Assembly: GCA_024236215.1 (NCBI GenBank)
Contig: JACKKX010000001.1
Location: forward strand, 981,501-1,045,500
DNA: 64,000 bases
Direction of reading: 5' to 3'
Origin: Novosphingobium sp.
Lineage (GTDB): Bacteria > Pseudomonadota > Alphaproteobacteria > Sphingomonadales > Sphingomonadaceae
Shown in pieces: positions 56,342 through 64,000 of this stretch; the stretch's first letter is position 1; each line of letters starts with the position of its first letter. The translations under genes were made by a program, and so were the position numbers. The notes under the pieces are model-generated. The model did not search any database, had not been told where the DNA came from, and saw only the letters and a program-made list of their open reading frames with translations.

Positions 56342-56428
56342 GCCCAGATGGCGGAATTGGTAGACGCACCGTCTTCAGGTGGCGGCGCTGGAAACGGCGT
56401 GGAGGTTCGAGTCCTCTTCTGGGCACCA
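56342..56428 (+). tRNA. tRNA-Leu (anticodon CAG)
   Basis: Full class-II tRNA cloverleaf: acceptor GCCCAGA pairs with TCTGGGC, D-arm GCGGAATTGGTAGACGC, anticodon loop TTCAGGT giving CAG for the CUG codon, a long variable arm, T-loop TTCGAGT between GGAGG and CCTCT, discriminator A and encoded CCA. It reads toward the integrase gene 178 bp downstream, a classic tRNA integration site for genomic islands; the 3' half may be the attachment site. Confidence 0.95.
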
Positions 56429-56605: not shown

Positions 56606-57808
56606 ATGAGCCTCAATGTGCAGGAAATCAAAGGCTTCCGGGCTGCCGACAAGTCGTACAAGAAATACGACTCGCGGGGGCTGCTGCTTCTGGTGAAGCC
56701 GAACGGCTCCAAGCTCTGGTATTTTAAGTACCGCTTCGGCGGGAAGGAAAAGAAGCTGCCCATCGGCGCGTTCCCAGAGGTCAGCTTGTCGCAAGCGCGT
56801 CAGCTTCGCGACCGAGCACGGCTCAAGGTTTCGGATGGCATCGATCCGATGCTGGAGCGCAAACGCAAGAAGGCCAGGATCAAGCTAGGTGCGGAGAACA
56901 CCTTTGAGGTCATCGCTAACAAGTACATCGACGAGAAGATGGTGCCCGAAGGCAGGGCAGAGGCCACGCTGCGCAAGGCGCGCTGGTTCCTCGAACTGCT
57001 CAAGCCCGCAATCGGCAATATGCCGATCAATGACGTCGATCCGCAGTTGATGTTGGCGGCGCTCAAGAAACTCGAAGCCAAAGGCAATCTCGAAACCGCG
57101 AAGAAGTGCCGATCGTTCTCAAGCCGGGTGTTCCGGTATGGGGCCGCGCTCGGCCAGTGCCAAACCGATCCAACATCGATCCTGCAGGGCGCTTTGGTCA
57201 CGCCGAAGGCACGGCACTACGCGGCGATCCTAGAACCAGAGAAGTTGGGTGGGCTGCTTCGTGCTATCGATGATTTCGAATGCTACCCGGCGACGAAGTT
57301 CGCGCTGAAGATCGCACCGCATGTTTTTGTGCGACCCGGTGAGCTACGCCACGGCGAGTGGCACGAGATCGATTGGGACAAGGCTACCTGGACAATTCCG
57401 GAAGGCAAGATGAAGGCGCGCCGGACCCATGTGGTGCCGCTATCTCGCCAGGTGCTGGATCTGTTCCGAGAGCTAAAATCGATCACCGGCGGCAAGGGCT
57501 ACATTTTCCCTGCATTTCACACAAGCCAGCGCCCCATGAGCGAGAATACGATCAACGCCGCATTTCGGCGTATGGGGTTCACCAAAGACGAAGTGACCGC
57601 CCACGGGCTGCGCTCGACGGCCTCGACCATGCTCAACGAGTGCGGCCTCTGGCATCCCGATGCCATCGAGAGGGCGCTCGCGCACGGCGACAGCAACGCA
57701 ATTCGCGGTGTCTACAATCGCGGCAACTACTGGGATGAACGGGTGAAAATGGCTCAGTGGTGGAGTGATTACCTGGATCGACTGCGAGCAGATTGCGTGA
57801 AAGATTGA
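56606..57808 (+). CDS. tyrosine-type integrase of a tRNA-Leu genomic island
   Basis: 400 aa, P4/CP4-57-type. N-terminal DUF4102 arm-binding domain (about 20-85), core-binding domain (about 100-190), catalytic domain with R243 in VRPGELR, H333-x2-R336 in HGLRSTAS, H360 and the nucleophile Y370 in RGVYNRGNYWDER. It integrates and, with an excisionase, excises circular DNA at tRNA 3' ends. GTGAGG 7-8 nt before ATG 56606 supports the start. No excisionase is recognisable nearby. It points into the accessory region and faces the retron. Confidence 0.95.
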   Translation: MSLNVQEIKGFRAADKSYKKYDSRGLLLLVKPNGSKLWYFKYRFGGKEKKLPIGAFPEVSLSQARQLRDRARLKVSDGIDPMLERKRKKARIKLGAENTFEVIANKYIDEKMVPEGRAEATLRKARWFLELLKPAIGNMPINDVDPQLMLAALKKLEAKGNLETAKKCRSFSSRVFRYGAALGQCQTDPTSILQGALVTPKARHYAAILEPEKLGGLLRAIDDFECYPATKFALKIAPHVFVRPGELRHGEWHEIDWDKATWTIPEGKMKARRTHVVPLSRQVLDLFRELKSITGGKGYIFPAFHTSQRPMSENTINAAFRRMGFTKDEVTAHGLRSTASTMLNECGLWHPDAIERALAHGDSNAIRGVYNRGNYWDERVKMAQWWSDYLDRLRADCVKD

Positions 57809-57906
57809 GCCAGCGCACAGTGGTTCGGCATCGGAATTCGCCAGATTATTCCGCTCCTATTTCGAAGTGAATTGGGAGAGATACTGAGCAGGCGACGGAA
57901 AATCGA

Positions 57907-59640
57907 TCAAGGCTTTGCCGCGTGGTGCTGGATTGCCTTGTTAATCCGCTCCAGCAGGGGATCAAAACCTGAGAAGTCGATCTTGTCCGCGTTGGCCTTT
58001 ACCACAGATTTTGCAAATGCCTCCTTGCTCAAATCCTTGGTTGGATCGATCTTGCTTGCTGTATTGAGCTTCTTCCCGTTGATCCTATGATCACGCCATT
58101 TCTTTGGGAACATGTCTTCGATGCACGTTTTTCGTGCGCCGTTCTCAGGCGTCTTCACGATATAAAGGTTTTCCGTCACATTGTAGAAATCGGCGGTGGA
58201 TTTTATGTCGATTGCCACCCCGAAATTCTTCTTCACGGTACTCGCGACGGCAGCCAGCCCTTCGTCATTGTCGAGAACGATGATGACAGGATGATGCATT
58301 GGCTCGTGCGCAAAGGGTTTGTGTGAATCCTTCGATGGCTTGAGATTGCGCAGATAGTCCAGCGGGATCGACTTCAGATCGCCTGTGCCGCCACCCAAAT
58401 CCATCACCTCGTGAGTCAGCCCGCCGTAATTGAAGTACCTCACGGTATGCTTGAAGCCGTCCTTTCCAGGCGCTCCGAGCGCAGGATGGAATTTTGTTCG
58501 GCTCCTGACGGCTTCCCGCAAGTAGACCGGATCGGTTTTCCCCTCAGTGATGATCAATGGCTCCTTCAGGGCCATGCAGTGCTTGTAGAAAAGGAAGCGG
58601 CGAAACAGCTTGCGGATCGCGCGAGGTTTTTGTCGCTGCTCGGAAATCTCCCTACGTTCCTCGCTTTGCGTCACCGAGTAGATATGTCCGAGGATGCCCT
58701 GAAGCGGGTTCAAATTGCTGGTCAGATCAGGTTTGGGTTCCTCGTCCTCGTCGTCCGGCTGGATCACAACCTTGTAATATTGCCCAGTCTGGAAAAGCAT
58801 GTCGCACATGGCGCGAGCGCGTCTGTAGTAGTCGCTGCGGATGTTGACCTTTTCGTTGACTACCAAGCCGGTGACCATCTGCCTGCTGCCGCGAAAGTGC
58901 ATTCGGGTCTTGGCGTTGTTGATCGTAAACCCAGAGTTCACGATCTTGCCCACAAGCTCTTCGCTCAAATGCCAAACCGCAGGGTCGTTCGGATCGACGG
59001 CCGCCAAGCCGGTCGGAAAGTCCTTCTGGCTTGTCGAGAATGTGATGTCGTCGGCGTAGCGCGTGTAGGTCACGCCATATTTCTTGGCCAACCGCACGAG
59101 GCGCATGTCAAGAATCTGAGCAATAAGTTCAGAGATCACAGGCGAGCACGGGCTACCCTGAGGGAGAGCAATGCCGTCACACGCAATTTGTGCAATCGTA
59201 GTTGCCACCTCGGGATTCAGGGCAAACGCCTTATCCTTCAGAAAAAAGCCGCGCACTCGGCCAAAGTTGAAGGACGGGAAGAAGTCTTCCAGATCGAGAT
59301 TGAGAACCCAGCGCCTTCTTTTGTGGCGTGATGCATTTTCAGCGACTGAGCGATTCTTCCGAAACCCGAAGGAAATCGGCGTTGCGCCGCGTTCCCGCTC
59401 GATTTCCGCAAGGCACTGATAAAGCACATGAGAAAGGTGCGATTGCAACTTCTTGAGCTTGGGTATCGGGGCTTTGATCGTCCGTTTGCCACCAGACTTC
59501 TTATCGATGTCGAACGTCGTATACTTTGCGGCGGGCAGTGTCTGGTAGACGATCGCAGTCATTGTCTTGGGCTGGTATCCCAAGATCGCTGCAAGCTCTT
59601 TTCTGGATGTGGCGGCTCTTAATTTCTGCAGATGAGACAC
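57907..59640 (-). CDS. retron reverse transcriptase fused to a TOPRIM domain
   Basis: 577 aa from GTG 59640 (VSHLQKLRAATSRKELA). RT motifs: NASRH at 102-106 fits the retron region-X NAxxH, LNLDLEDFF has the first catalytic Asp (D116), ALPQGSPCSP 158-167, YADD at 195-198, and MVTGLVVN at 255-262 fits the retron region-Y VTG. After a charged linker a TOPRIM domain follows: ITEGKTD (E366) and VLDNDEG (D457, D459). RT-TOPRIM fusions are a recognised, little-studied retron class (type I-C in one scheme, from memory) thought to defend against phage. TTG and other GTG starts lie up to 12 nt upstream; the longer open frame to 59880 runs through the msr-msd RNA and is not coding. Confidence 0.92.
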   Translation of the reverse strand: MSHLQKLRAATSRKELAAILGYQPKTMTAIVYQTLPAAKYTTFDIDKKSGGKRTIKAPIPKLKKLQSHLSHVLYQCLAEIERERGATPISFGFRKNRSVAENASRHKRRRWVLNLDLEDFFPSFNFGRVRGFFLKDKAFALNPEVATTIAQIACDGIALPQGSPCSPVISELIAQILDMRLVRLAKKYGVTYTRYADDITFSTSQKDFPTGLAAVDPNDPAVWHLSEELVGKIVNSGFTINNAKTRMHFRGSRQMVTGLVVNEKVNIRSDYYRRARAMCDMLFQTGQYYKVVIQPDDEDEEPKPDLTSNLNPLQGILGHIYSVTQSEERREISEQRQKPRAIRKLFRRFLFYKHCMALKEPLIITEGKTDPVYLREAVRSRTKFHPALGAPGKDGFKHTVRYFNYGGLTHEVMDLGGGTGDLKSIPLDYLRNLKPSKDSHKPFAHEPMHHPVIIVLDNDEGLAAVASTVKKNFGVAIDIKSTADFYNVTENLYIVKTPENGARKTCIEDMFPKKWRDHRINGKKLNTASKIDPTKDLSKEAFAKSVVKANADKIDFSGFDPLLERINKAIQHHAAKP

Positions 59641-59657
59641 ATACACTCGCAAATAAA

Positions 59658-59800
59658 AAGGCTTACAGGCACTCCTACGCGAACATCGGGCATCTGAACG
59701 AAACGGACAACCCGCAATAAGTGTCAAGGGAGCACAAGTGCCCTCCTGGCATTGGTACATATGTCTCGAAGCCGGACAACAATTCTGCCTGTAAGCCCTT
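59658..59800 (-). ncRNA. putative retron msr-msd RNA with a1/a2 inverted repeats
   Basis: On the minus strand, just before the RT gene, GGCTTACAGGCA (59797-59786, read 5' to 3') and its exact complement TGCCTGTAAGCC (59671-59660) enclose 114 nt. A bulged outer AA/TT extends the stem. This is the a1/a2 arrangement that frames retron ncRNAs, with a2 ending about 20 nt before the RT start. Inside, GGAG-GG-CAC-TT-GTG-CTCC (around 59746-59727) can form a hairpin and GACA/TGTC (around 59723-59704) another short stem. The exact branching guanosine and the msd limits cannot be fixed by eye. Confidence 0.75.
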
Positions 59801-59947
59801 GAGGCGCCTACACCCTTGGATCGGTAATTGGCAACATCCAAGAGCCGGCAAACATGATTGTAGATGTCGCTATCTGTCACTGGCGTCGCTTGCCAAGCGA
59901 ATACTCCGATTGGAAATAGTCGATGGACATTCCCAATGCCTCGAGGG

Positions 59948-59966
59948 CCGGGCGCTAAGCGCCCGG
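59948..59966 (-). terminator. hairpin containing the stop codon of the 74-aa gene
   Basis: Perfect 8-bp stem CCGGGCGC / GCGCCCGG with a 3-nt loop; the minus-strand TAG stop of the small gene (59957-59955) lies in loop and stem. No U-tract follows, so it may stop translation-coupled read-through into the retron, or stabilise the mRNA end. Confidence 0.5.
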
Positions 59967-60179
59967 TTCCTTCTTCTCGTCGTCCAGCGGCGTGCGAAGG
60001 ACGATCCGGCCATTGATCGGCACGACTTCAAGCTGAAGCGAAAGCCCCTTGCGGTCGCGGTGGAACCACGCGGCTCCAATGCGGGTCCAGAAGCCCTTGT
60101 CGCCCTTGTTGGCGACATGCCAGGCGAGGAAGTCCGGCGGATTGATCTCCTGCGCGGGTGCAGTGCTGCTGCGTGCCAT
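59955..60179 (-). CDS. small cytoplasmic island protein
   Basis: 74 aa from ATG 60179 (MARSSTAPAQEINPPDF), with AAAGGAAA 7 nt upstream. A compact beta-rich body: FLAWHVANKGDKGFWTRIG, GAAWFHRDRKGLSLQLEVVP, NGRIVLRTPLDDEKK. I recall similar small proteins on plasmids and conjugative islands of alphaproteobacteria, with no known role. The upstream frame to 60365 is not protein-like. It is upstream of the retron on the same strand but separated by the hairpin at 59948-59966 and about 150 bp. Confidence 0.7.
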   Translation of the reverse strand: MARSSTAPAQEINPPDFLAWHVANKGDKGFWTRIGAAWFHRDRKGLSLQLEVVPINGRIVLRTPLDDEKKEPGA

Positions 60180-60524
60180 GATGATTTCCTTTCGTGTCTG
60201 GTGGCTCGTTGCACCAAACGGGAAGGCCGCATGGTCAAGGTAAGGATTCATGTCCAACACGGGTGAGCAGAGCGAACTGGCGCGGGCCGGGCATTGAAGG
60301 CTGACCGCGTGCGGCCAATTCGGGTGCTCAAAACGAAGGCGACTGATCGAAAGGCGTCCGAGCACTTAGCCACTCGCTACACTTGCGCGCTGGACCACTC
60401 TCGCTCAAACCTTCGCCATGATCGCCGAGGGCAGATCGGAGCACATGATCGGCTCACAAAGTCGCGCCTGATGATTGGCGTTCTGAATAGCGGTAGTGGC
60501 CCAGACAAACTGGGTGGAGGGCAA
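60180..60524. other. 345-bp region between the small island protein and the GIY-YIG gene
   Basis: Divergent promoter region. The open plus-strand frame from 60294 has no protein character (Arg-rich, no domain). GGTGGAGG at 60513-60520 is a ribosome-binding site for the GTG at 60525. No repeats or operators were seen. Confidence 0.4.
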
Positions 60525-61364
60525 GTGGAATTCGAAGGAAATCGTGCCGCTGCGGATAGCTATCTGAACACGATTTCAGGGCGGTACTACGTCTATGTAC
60601 TGTGCCGCCCAGATGGGCGACCATTCTATGTCGGAAAGGGCCTCAATCGGCGGGCATTGGAACACGAGGCTGAGGCCCGTCGACATCACCCAATCGGCGA
60701 AACCAATCCCTTCAAATGCAATGTGATTCGAAAAATCATTCGTGATGGGCACGAGGTCACGTATCGGATCGAGGCGCATTACGACGCAAGCAATCAACAG
60801 GCCTGCCTGGAACGCGAAGCTGCGCTCATCAAGGAGTATGGCCGCCTTCATGAAGGCGGTCACCTTACGAACCTTGCCGGTGGCGTTGGGAATATGTCCG
60901 GTGCAGCACCTTTCAGCCTTGAGCGACACGCGGCGACGCTTTCGGGTGAGCCGGAAGGCAATCCAGAGCGAGCAACATTGAATCGTTTTCTGCAAGGCTT
61001 CGGCGAGGTCGGCAGCGTTCCCGTCAAGCCGGTCAGCCAAATATCGCGCGTCCTTCCGACCACGCCGCATCCAAATGCAAGATCGCCGACACAACGCTGC
61101 GCCTATGCACTATTGGCAAGTGCGGCGGCGTCCGGAGTGTTGTTTTCAGATAAGCCCGTGACGATCCCAAGAGCCTTCACATACCAGAATGTCGATGCAG
61201 TAATCGAAAACGGTGTGGCGCGAGACATCTTGAAGGCCGGAATGGCTGACCTCTTGGCCAACCCAAACCCCCTCGACGAAGCATTTATCCTGTCTGATCG
61301 GCATGTGGCCATTCTGGTCGATCTGGTAGGCGAAATGACACTGATCGAGCGGGGTCTTCTATAA
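60525..61364 (+). CDS. GIY-YIG-domain nuclease-like protein
   Basis: 279 aa from GTG 60525 (VEFEGNRAAADSY), chosen for GGAGG 4 nt upstream; ATG 60471 and the frame opening at 60294 are alternatives. Residues about 20-110 form a GIY-YIG-type domain: YYVYVLCRPDGRPFYVGKG holds the two beta-strand signatures, then NRRALEHEAEA, and LEREAALIKEYG with the catalytic-type Glu. The C-terminal 150 residues are unrecognised. The pattern is nearest to LEM3-like or homing-type GIY-YIG proteins. In an island next to a retron, a defence nuclease is plausible but unproved. The gene ends right at the truncated acyl-CoA synthetase. Confidence 0.72.
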   Translation: MEFEGNRAAADSYLNTISGRYYVYVLCRPDGRPFYVGKGLNRRALEHEAEARRHHPIGETNPFKCNVIRKIIRDGHEVTYRIEAHYDASNQQACLEREAALIKEYGRLHEGGHLTNLAGGVGNMSGAAPFSLERHAATLSGEPEGNPERATLNRFLQGFGEVGSVPVKPVSQISRVLPTTPHPNARSPTQRCAYALLASAAASGVLFSDKPVTIPRAFTYQNVDAVIENGVARDILKAGMADLLANPNPLDEAFILSDRHVAILVDLVGEMTLIERGLL

Positions 61365-62123
61365 TCCTATATCGCCTTGATGAACGAGCCATCGGTGCGC
61401 GCGGATCAGTTCACGTCTTATCGCACGATGATCAGCGGCGGCGCACCGACCCCGCTGGGTGCGTTGCGCGCGTTCGAGGAACGGTTCGGCATCGTCCTGC
61501 GCAACGGATATGGCATGACCGAAACGTCCGGCATCGCCATCGTTTGCCCGCTGGATTCAGAGCCGCGCGTAGATGCCGACACGGGGGGCATCGCGTTGGG
61601 CAAGGCCATAGAAGGGTTCACCATCACTATCGTGGCCGATGATGGCAAGCCTGCAGCGGCCCATGCGGTGGGAGAGATCGTGATGAATTCGTCCGCCCTG
61701 TCCTGCGGATACTGGCTGAACGAGGACGCGACGCGCGCCTCGCGCTGCGAATACGGGCTCAAGAGCGGCGACGTCGGCAAGATGGACGAGGATGGGTATA
61801 TCTACATCGTCGACCGGAAAAAGGACGTCATCATCGCCGGCGGGTACAAGGTGTGGCCGCGCGAAGTGGAGGATGTCCTGTATCAGCATCCCGCCGTGCG
61901 GGAGGCGGCCGTGGTCGGCGTCGCCGATGATTATCGCGGCGAAACGGTCAAGGCGGTGGTAAGCCTGCGCCCCGGCATCCAGGCCGATCCCGATGAAATT
62001 CGTGAGTTCTGCAAGGATCGCCTGGCCGCGTATAAATATCCGCGCATCGTCGAAATCATCGACGAATTGCCAAAGACGGTGACGGGCAAGGTGCTGCGCC
62101 GCGAATTGCGCGACAACGCCTGA
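61365..62123 (+). pseudogene. acyl-CoA synthetase (AMP-binding) lacking its N-terminal half
   Basis: Only the C-terminal part of an ANL-family acyl-CoA ligase is present: TMISGGAPTPLGALRAFEERFG, NGYGMTETSGI (ATP/AMP site), GDVGKMDEDGYIYIVDRKKDVI and the closing PKTVTGKVLRRELRD with the catalytic Lys. Homology begins near YIALMNEP, about 250 residues into a normal enzyme, directly after the GIY-YIG stop in the same frame. A TTG at 61377 followed by ATG could start a fragment, but the adenylate-forming P-loop is lost. The boundary marks a recombination junction. Confidence 0.85.
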
Positions 62124-62641: not shown

Positions 62642-63886
62642 TCACCAGCTGGCCGGAAGCTCCTTGAGGCCGCGCAGCACGAAGGTCGGCCGCCACTTCG
62701 GATTTTCCACGTCGTCGATGCGCAGATTCGGAATCCGGCGCAGCAGCGTCGTGAGCGCGACCTCGGCTTCGAGCCGCGCGAGCTGCGCGCCGAGGCAGAA
62801 GTGAATACCACCGCCGAACGACAGCGGCCGCACGTTCGGCCGCGTGATGTCGAGCCGATCCGGATGATCGGGATAGACAGCCGGATCGTGATTGGCCGAG
62901 CCGAGCAGACACATCACGTTGTCGCCCTGCGGAATTTTCACGCCGCCGATCTCGACATCCTCCATCGCGACGTGGTAGGTGAGCTGCACCGAGGAGTCGT
63001 AGCGCAGGAATTCCTCGATCGCGTTCGGCATCAGCGACAGGTTGGACTTCAGCAGTTCGAGCTGGTCCGGATTGCGATGCAGCGCCAGCAGCGCATTGCC
63101 GATCAGGTTCACCGTGGTCTCGTGACCCGCGCCGAACAGCAGGATGATGTTCGCGGTCAGCTCTTCGTTGCTGAGCTTGCTGCCGGCCTCTTCCGCCTGA
63201 ACCAGTTGAGTCGTCAGGTCGTCGCCCGGCTCGCGGCGGCGCAGATCGAACAGCCGCTGGAAATAGGCTTCGGAATTGGCGTGCGCGGCATTGGCCTCGT
63301 CGATCTCGGCGCGCGACAGCGGCACCGGATCGAGCAGACGGCCGCCGGTGCGCTCGCGCTTGAAGAAGATTTCGCGATCCGTCTCCGGAATGCCGAGCAT
63401 GTCGCAGATGACGATGACTGGCAGGCGGAACGCGAAGTCCGAGATCAGGTCCATGCGGCCCTGCCCGATCACCCGGTCGATCGAGTCGTCGACGATCGCC
63501 TGGATCTTCGGACGCATGTCCTCGACGCGGCGCGCCGTGAACGCCTTGACGACAAGGCCGCGCAGGCGGGTGTGGTCGGGCGGATCCTGCGTCAGCATCC
63601 AGCGGCCCATCGCGCGATAAACAGGCTCGTTCAGCGCTTCCGGCCAGCGGCGCGTGATGCGGGTGACGTAATCCTTGCCGAACCGCTTGTCGCGCAGCAC
63701 CAGCGCCGCGTCGGCATTGCGGCTGACGAGATAGCCGTTCAGCGCCGGCAGATGCAGCACCGGCGCGTGCGTGCGCAGCTTGTCGTAGGAGGGATAGGGA
63801 TCGCGGATGAAGTCCGGAGACAGCGGGTTGAACAGCGGCTGGGCGCTTGCCGTCTGGGTTGTAGCCCCTTGCAACTGCTCGTTCAT
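62642..63886 (-). CDS. cytochrome P450
   Basis: 414 aa from ATG 63886 (MNEQLQGATTQTA). Heme-binding loop FGGGIHFCLGAQLARLE with Cys364, I-helix oxygen-activation site LLFGAGHETTVN, and the K-helix ExxR in IEEFLRY. Soluble bacterial class-I type, so it needs a ferredoxin and reductase that are not in the window. The substrate is unknown; CYP107-like and similar families are near by overall pattern. It is on the accessory side of the window, together with the acyl-CoA ligase remnant and small barrel protein. The frame extends 28 codons upstream without support. Confidence 0.93.
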   Translation of the reverse strand: MNEQLQGATTQTASAQPLFNPLSPDFIRDPYPSYDKLRTHAPVLHLPALNGYLVSRNADAALVLRDKRFGKDYVTRITRRWPEALNEPVYRAMGRWMLTQDPPDHTRLRGLVVKAFTARRVEDMRPKIQAIVDDSIDRVIGQGRMDLISDFAFRLPVIVICDMLGIPETDREIFFKRERTGGRLLDPVPLSRAEIDEANAAHANSEAYFQRLFDLRRREPGDDLTTQLVQAEEAGSKLSNEELTANIILLFGAGHETTVNLIGNALLALHRNPDQLELLKSNLSLMPNAIEEFLRYDSSVQLTYHVAMEDVEIGGVKIPQGDNVMCLLGSANHDPAVYPDHPDRLDITRPNVRPLSFGGGIHFCLGAQLARLEAEVALTTLLRRIPNLRIDDVENPKWRPTFVLRGLKELPASW

Positions 63887-64000
63887 GAATGTCTCCCTGA
63901 AAATAGTTAATGCGATCACGCCGCGTTTGGCTGCCGTTTTACGCGATCCCGGACCGGAAGCACAAGACAATTATACCTGCATTCCCCAAGTGGCGTGGCG

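What the first reader, a model, noticed from the sequence alone, without database searches (positions are those of the whole stretch)
57907..59800. A complete retron with an RT-TOPRIM fusion in a tRNA-Leu island
The reverse transcriptase carries both retron-specific marks (NAxxH before the first catalytic Asp, VTG after YADD) and a C-terminal TOPRIM with Glu and DxD metal ligands in one 577-aa chain. RT-TOPRIM retrons have been catalogued bioinformatically but, as far as I know, none is mechanistically understood; TOPRIM nucleases cut or nick nucleic acid, so it could act as an effector triggered when phage disturbs the RT-msDNA complex. There is no separate effector gene, making this a single-protein defence system.
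Basis: partly seen in the sequence, partly recalled or inferred. Interest (0 to 1): 0.9.

Follow-up and report, generated by a model that had tools for sequence, protein, structure and literature searches.

The report
Eco2-type retron on a mobile island
This stretch holds what looks like a complete bacterial anti-phage retron of the already described Eco2 (Ec67) kind, a reverse transcriptase fused to a TOPRIM nuclease with its RNA template beside it, on an element inserted next to a leucine tRNA gene; it is a good new example of a known system whose mechanism has been published.

Summary
The minus-strand ORF 59640-57907 (577 aa) carries NAxxH, YADD, VTG and a C-terminal TOPRIM with Glu and DxD. 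It is a type I-C (Eco2/Ec67-family) retron: PADLOC RT-Toprim_I-C 715 bits, NCBIfam retron_Ec67_fus 672 bits against a cut-off of 450, near full-length match to the solved Eco2 protein, 2e-111. The template RNA is there: a1/a2 repeats at 59800-59786 and 59671-59657. A covariance model built from 19 other loci, without the window and its closest kin, finds exactly 59800-59657 and nothing else in 64 kb (E 3.6e-22). An RT tree puts it inside the I-C clade, away from group II and DGR enzymes.

The claim that no RT-TOPRIM retron is understood is out of date. Eco2's structure, RNase activity and probable DenB trigger are published (PMC12405507); tRNA cleavage is in a preprint that I know only through PMC12956279.

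The island is real: an exact 25-bp copy of the tRNA-Leu end lies 28.5 kb away, with Mza-like and relaxase genes between. One difference: the loop bearing R332, which Eco2 needs, is missing in 15 of 17 aligned proteins, this one included.

The parts
57907..59640 (-). RT-TOPRIM fusion protein, 577 aa, GTG start at 59640 (GTG at 59646 also possible)
   Evidence: profiles begin at this point, not at the upstream GTG of the open frame
58561..59640 (-). Reverse transcriptase domain, about residues 1-360: NAxxH 102-106, YADD 195-198, VTG 256-258
   Evidence: Pfam RVT_1 3.3e-20; residues read; invariance. The boundary is inferred from Eco2
57910..58560 (-). TOPRIM domain, about residues 361-577: E366, G367, D370, D457-N458-D459, E508, K539
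   Evidence: Aligned to Eco2 E374, D378, D460, D462, E515; invariant in 17 of 17. No Pfam TOPRIM match
59657..59800 (-). Retron non-coding RNA (msr-msd), 144 nt
   Evidence: Only match of leave-out covariance model R1 in the window at E up to 10: 84.9 bits, E 3.6e-22
59786..59800 (-). Repeat a1 (15 nt)
   Evidence: pairs with a2, 14 of 15 pairs show changes on both sides among 23 loci
59785..59785 (-). Presumed branching guanosine, first base after a1
   Evidence: Invariant G in 23 of 23 aligned RNAs; corresponds to rG15 of Eco2 by position; inferred
59762..59778 (-). msr stem-loop
   Evidence: 6 of 7 pairs show changes on both sides; two inner pairs are not standard in the window
59673..59750 (-). 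Predicted msd template, about 78 nt (ends uncertain by a few bases)
   Evidence: Inferred from Eco2 numbering in the paper and my recall of the Ec67 RNA; coordinates
59657..59671 (-). Repeat a2 (15 nt)
56342..56428 (+). tRNA-Leu (CAG), attachment gene of the island
   Evidence: its 3' 25 bp (56404-56428) recur exactly at G000:C1:1066391-1066415
56606..57808 (+). Tyrosine integrase of the island
   Evidence: Pfam Arm-DNA-bind_3, Phage_int_M, Phage_integrase

Best explanation
It is a type I-C (Eco2/Ec67-family) retron. Shown by sequence: an RNA with paired ends a1/a2, a conserved G after a1, and an RT-TOPRIM protein with complete RT and TOPRIM motifs just downstream. Inferred from Eco2: the RT primes from the 2'-OH of that G and makes an msDNA (about 78 nt here). 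The RNA-DNA hybrid stays bound to the protein and keeps the TOPRIM shut. A phage function that cuts or removes the msDNA frees the TOPRIM, which cleaves RNA, probably tRNA, and stops translation before the phage can multiply. Which phage triggers it, and which RNA is cut, are unknown for this lineage.
For: Family matches: PADLOC I-C 1.6e-215, NCBIfam Ec67 671.8 bits over a cut-off of 450, solved Eco2 chain 2e-111 over residues 2-573. Tree: window inside a 20-row I-C clade (97/99), split from group II and DGR rows by 100/99. RNA: 23 loci, 86.5% of cells paired against 70.8% in shuffles (0 of 500) and at most 43.1% when slid; leave-out model hit E 3.6e-22; the same model hits 5 of 16 sources, all 5 with RTs of the window's part of the I-C clade, and none of the 11 others. 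Catalytic residues invariant in 17 of 17. Purifying selection: dN/dS 0.059 and 0.051 against L001 and L003 (no value for L002 and L004, dS saturated). Eco2 mechanism: PMC12405507.
Against: No msDNA, RNA cleavage or phage protection was measured for this locus. The Eco2 stretch with D331-R332-Y333 is missing here; [quoted passage not shown] Eco2's metal-B ligand S513 is Cys here, although that column varies among relatives. Two inner pairs of the msr stem are not standard in the window, the isolated RNA is not unusually stable (z -0.09), and one of the five covariation measures, the number of further pair types, is not above shuffles (38 against a mean of 39.7; 420 of 500 as high). Pfam shows no TOPRIM domain.
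Confidence: 0.85

Rival explanations
1. It is a type I-C retron, but its TOPRIM cuts DNA (as OLD/Gabija TOPRIM nucleases do) rather than RNA.
For: The TOPRIM fold is shared with DNA-cutting OLD and GajA nucleases (PMC12405507); the ligand position S513 of Eco2 is Cys here.
Against: The closest solved and tested protein, Eco2, shows RNase activity that depends on the equivalent E374 and D378; E366, D370, D457, D459 and E508 are all kept.
Confidence: 0.12
2. It is a decayed or domesticated copy that no longer makes msDNA.
For: Several relatives look broken: L005, L008 and L030 align in two pieces in different frames, L039 is annotated as 500 aa and matches the profile only to position 455 of 568.
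Against: Frame intact, catalytic residues present, dN/dS about 0.05 where it could be computed, RNA intact with conserved a1/a2.
Confidence: 0.04
3. It is another kind of reverse transcriptase (group II intron, DGR or DRT) that merely resembles a retron.
For: Weak match to the group II maturase profile, 51.8 bits against a cut-off of 300, and to Drt2 and Drt3a, 30.3 and 26.9 bits, also below their cut-offs.
Against: Tree, the a1/a2 RNA and NAxxH/VTG all say retron.
Confidence: 0.01

Closest known systems
Retron-Eco2 (Ec67), type I-C; PDB 9lm3, 9i2f, 9i2g, 9s1f
   Same: RT and TOPRIM in one chain, aligned over residues 2-573; RNA with a1/a2, branching G after a1 and one msr stem-loop as described in PMC12405507; TOPRIM Glu/DxD/Glu
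   Different: Lacks a 14-residue stretch holding Eco2 D331-R332-Y333; Cys at Eco2 S513; predicted msd about 78 nt (inferred) against 67 nt; sits on a tRNA-Leu element, whereas the E. coli Ec67-family locus L039 lies beside phage portal and terminase genes
Relatives: Porphyrobacter sp. MCMED-G16 (L001), Gluconobacter frateurii (L002), a Sphingomonadales assembly (L003), Sinorhizobium meliloti GR4 plasmid pRmeGR4b (L025)
   Same: 91, 85, 83 and 65% identical RT-TOPRIM with the same kind of RNA upstream
   Different: Hosts of Sphingomonadales, Acetobacteraceae and Rhizobiaceae, which points to horizontal transfer; L025 is on a plasmid and annotated as retron Ec67 family
Type I-B retrons (OLD ATPase-TOPRIM effector, e.g. 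Retron-Eco8)
   Same: TOPRIM effector under retron control (PMC10568477, passages)
   Different: There the TOPRIM is in a separate ATPase protein; here it is fused to the RT

Membership tests
Type I-C retron (Eco2/Ec67 family) | Single chain RT + C-terminal TOPRIM matching the family profile | tested here: met
Type I-C retron (Eco2/Ec67 family) | Retron RT motifs NAxxH, YxDD, VTG | tested here: met
   the three motifs are named as conserved in Eco1 and Eco2 in PMC12405507
Type I-C retron (Eco2/Ec67 family) | RT falls in the I-C clade | tested here: met
   (97/99; the program warns of long outgroup branches)
Type I-C retron (Eco2/Ec67 family) | ncRNA upstream with complementary a1/a2 and a conserved G after a1 | tested here: met
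Type I-C retron (Eco2/Ec67 family) | TOPRIM active site Glu, DxD and second Glu | tested here: met
   the metal-B Ser is Cys here, a column that varies in the family
Type I-C retron (Eco2/Ec67 family) | Branched msDNA (2'-5' link) is made | not testable with these tools
   Needs msDNA extraction
Type I-C retron (Eco2/Ec67 family) | Anti-phage activity by RNA cleavage after msDNA damage | not testable with these tools
   Reported for Eco2 in PMC12405507 (the msDNA-damage step is proposed there, not shown directly)
Eco2 itself (not required of the family) | Trimer-contact loop 328-342 with R332 | tested here: not met
   14-residue gap; only 2 of 17 aligned proteins (L027, L029) have a long segment there
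Group II intron maturase | Match above the family cut-off and tree position | tested here: not met
   51.8 bits against 300
Diversity-generating retroelement RT | Tree position with a DGR RT | tested here: not met
   with BPP-1 Brt as the single DGR row (long branch)

The most novel reading that the evidence does not exclude
Most type I-C retrons compared here, this one included, lack the R332 loop that Eco2 needs for defence. They may therefore assemble and be held inactive in another way than the Eco2 trimer (through msr RNA alone, or not as a trimer), and may sense another phage function than DenB.
Probability: 0.3. Interest if true: 0.45.

Novelty: new member of a known kind. Interest (0 to 1): 0.25.

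Why it matters
It adds an intact alphaproteobacterial member, evidently under selection, to a retron class whose mechanism I found described for one E. coli example. Comparison shows which Eco2 features are general among the proteins aligned here (RNA a1/a2, the conserved G, msr stem, TOPRIM Glu/DxD/Glu) and which are not (the R332 loop, S513, H281). That makes the generality of the Eco2 model testable.

Tried and rejected
The open frame running upstream through the RNA (129 codons in the window) might have meant an N-terminal extension, with a Cys-rich stretch. Rejected: it is 14 codons in L001, 28 in L002, 12 in L004 and none in L025, and the best profiles begin at residues 80-84. Against this, L003 is also open for 75 codons, i.e. 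through its RNA.

RNA folding of the single sequence was uninformative (z -0.09), and Rfam had no family for it at gathering score. A search for att copies inside the window found only the tRNA itself; the copy lies beyond the window's end. The sigma-70 scan found no promoter-like site on the minus strand in 57800-60300.

The RNA as a chance inverted repeat: the window's score alone is reached by 2 of 200 shuffles, and the weakest of the 22 loci (L035, 9.3) is near the window's shuffle mean (8.99), so the case rests on comparison between loci. The RNA regions were cut at each locus's best inverted repeat (for L008 at the inner part of a longer one), so helix 1 counts lean towards pairing; the leave-out model and the msr stem, not used for cutting but drawn by eye from these sequences, are the better tests.

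Rows left out of the 17-row protein alignment A2: L005, L008, L030 (two tblastn pieces in different frames), L013, L037, L009 (partial), L039 (short C-end), duplicates L010, L012, L032, L033, and L053 and L054, which were fetched later. The rows called 'retron' in the tree were labelled by me from their motifs and the PADLOC search that fetched them. The AlphaFold model could not be made, so the fold rests on sequence match to the solved Eco2 chain. The paper's catalytic lysine K562 could not be matched: by my count residue 562 of the chain is Asp; the invariant lysine here (K539) aligns with chain position 546.

Full report
Observation. The minus strand of the window holds an open reading frame that ends at 57907.

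Identity. PADLOC's best match is RT-Toprim_I-C, 1.6e-215. NCBIfam's is retron_Ec67_fus, 671.8 bits over a cut-off of 450, full profile; TIR-retron, St85 and group II profiles stay below their cut-offs. Pfam shows only the RT domain above its cut-off. Among solved structures the best are the Eco2 (Ec67) chains 9lm3 and 9i2f, E 2e-111, residues 2-573. In a tree of 38 RTs the window lies in a 20-row clade of I-C enzymes and three candidates (97/99). A 100/99 branch separates the 30 retron-like rows (two of them, L015 and L017, other RTs) from the 8 group II, DGR and other rows (the program warns of long branches, the DGR row and L017 among them).

The RNA. In 22 of 22 loci examined (290-nt stretches, 260 before and 30 after the RT start), the best inverted repeat lies at or overlaps the same conserved ends, AGA after a1 and GAGT at a2, although the repeat sequence differs. 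On an alignment of 23 RNAs (an E. coli locus, L039, added), 14 of 15 a1/a2 pairs and 6 of 7 msr-stem pairs show changes on both sides. 86.5% of cells are paired, against 70.8% in shuffles (0 of 500 as high) and at most 43.1% with the partner slid; the number of further pair types is not above shuffles (38 against 39.7, 420 of 500 as high). Because regions were cut at their repeats, I built a model from 19 loci without the window, L001, L002 and L003. It finds 59800-59657 as the only match in the window at E up to 10 (84.9 bits, E 3.6e-22). Over 16 sources it finds 5 (window, L001, L002, L003, L054) and none of 11 others: eight loci that I labelled as other retron RTs, L053 (a candidate at the base of the I-C clade), one group II locus and one DGR locus. 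Eco2's numbering in PMC12405507 puts the branching rG15 at the end of the repeat and the stem-loop from G20; the window has G at 59785, AATT, then the stem region. The msd of about 78 nt (59750-59673) is inferred partly from recall of the Ec67 RNA.

Function. Eco2 is published. I read the abstract, Results and Discussion of PMC12405507. It reports an msDNA:RT-Toprim trimer that inhibits itself, a Toprim that cleaves RNA and is toxic alone, mutations of the Toprim site that abolish defence, and phage escape mutations in denB; that DenB degrades the msDNA is proposed there, not shown directly. [quoted passage not shown] I did not see that preprint. By homology the same chain of events is most likely here; every step after the sequence anatomy is inferred. 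The classification paper for retron types (Mestre 2020) is not held; the label I-C comes from PADLOC. Searches of the held library for 'retron' with 'RT-Toprim' (4 papers), with 'Sphingomonadales' (1, unrelated by its title and abstract), and for two of 'retron', 'Alphaproteobacteria', 'Ec67' (40 papers, 15 listed) showed no study of this lineage in what was listed. Two alphaproteobacterial papers from that list were checked by passages: one names a 314-aa retron-like RT on a Paracoccus plasmid (PMC3832669), the other a retron with a separate NDT effector (PMC10221251); neither is an RT-TOPRIM in the passages seen.

Differences from Eco2. The stretch with Eco2 D331-R332-Y333 falls in a 14-residue gap of the window protein. 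Between two invariant residues (G315, E366) the window has 52 residues; L027 has 72 and L029 has 66, the other 15 of 17, window included, have 51-55. R332A abolishes Eco2 defence, but it only partly impairs the trimer, which the authors ascribe mainly to msDNA. So most of the type I-C members aligned here must manage without that contact. Eco2 S513 is Cys here and varies among relatives; E515 is invariant.

Distribution. 7 of 396 genomes drawn from the order hold a relative at E up to 1e-60, the own genome included. 2 of 61 genomes (own and relatives) pass the family cut-off. In E. coli, 525 of 5426 complete genomes match the Ec67-family stretch of plasmid record CP088398 (L029), 512 over at least 80% of it. 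The plasmid collection gave 36 records and the phage collection 8, at E limits of 1e-30 and 1e-20. An 85% identical copy sits in Gluconobacter (Acetobacteraceae), so the retron probably moves between orders.

Setting. The 3' 25 bp of tRNA-Leu (56404-56428) recur exactly at G000:C1:1066391-1066415, 28.5 kb on. Between the copies lie the integrase, the retron, a GIY-YIG ORF weakly like PD-T4-3, an AMP-ligase fragment and a P450, a DDE transposase, genes matching MzaB, MzaC, MzaD and MzaE, Vsr, a C5 methylase, and a TrwC-type relaxase and a TrwB-type coupling protein. This looks like an integrative mobilisable element loaded with defence genes; an empty site was not checked.

Verdict. Observation confirmed; the kind is known and its mechanism is published for Eco2. 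New member of a known kind, interest 0.25. The missing R332 loop is the one point that a specialist could use.

Noticed in passing
window 56404-56428 and G000:C1:1066391-1066415 (beyond the window end): Exact 25-bp direct repeat of the tRNA-Leu 3' end bounds a 28.5-kb element. An empty site was not looked for.
   Followed up: partly
L085:3598-10879 and L086:2-1950 (G000:C1 about 1048598-1057950): Genes matching MzaB, MzaC, MzaD and MzaE in a row, then a C5 cytosine methylase (475 of its 510 aa scanned; no MzaA among the 25 of 48 PADLOC matches shown) and Vsr: an Mza-like defence system on the same element.
   Followed up: partly
window 60294-61364 (+): GIY-YIG domain ORF with a weak match to the anti-phage protein PD-T4-3 (36-37 bits), beside the retron.
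   Followed up: partly
L086:1955-6522 (-): TrwC-type relaxase/helicase and TrwB-type coupling protein; the element may be mobilisable.
   Followed up: partly
window 61377-62123 (+): AMP-binding ligase matching the main profile only from position 281 on, i.e. without its N-terminal part, next to a P450 at 62642-63970.
   Followed up: no
window 59955-60179 (-), inverted repeat at 59948-59966: Small ORF without Pfam match, upstream of the retron on the same strand; a perfect 9-bp inverted repeat overlaps its 3' end, which the terminator scan lists on the + strand.
   Followed up: no
L053 (G514): RT in a 606-aa frame at the base of the I-C clade without an RNA that model R1 can find; perhaps another I-C subgroup.
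   Followed up: no
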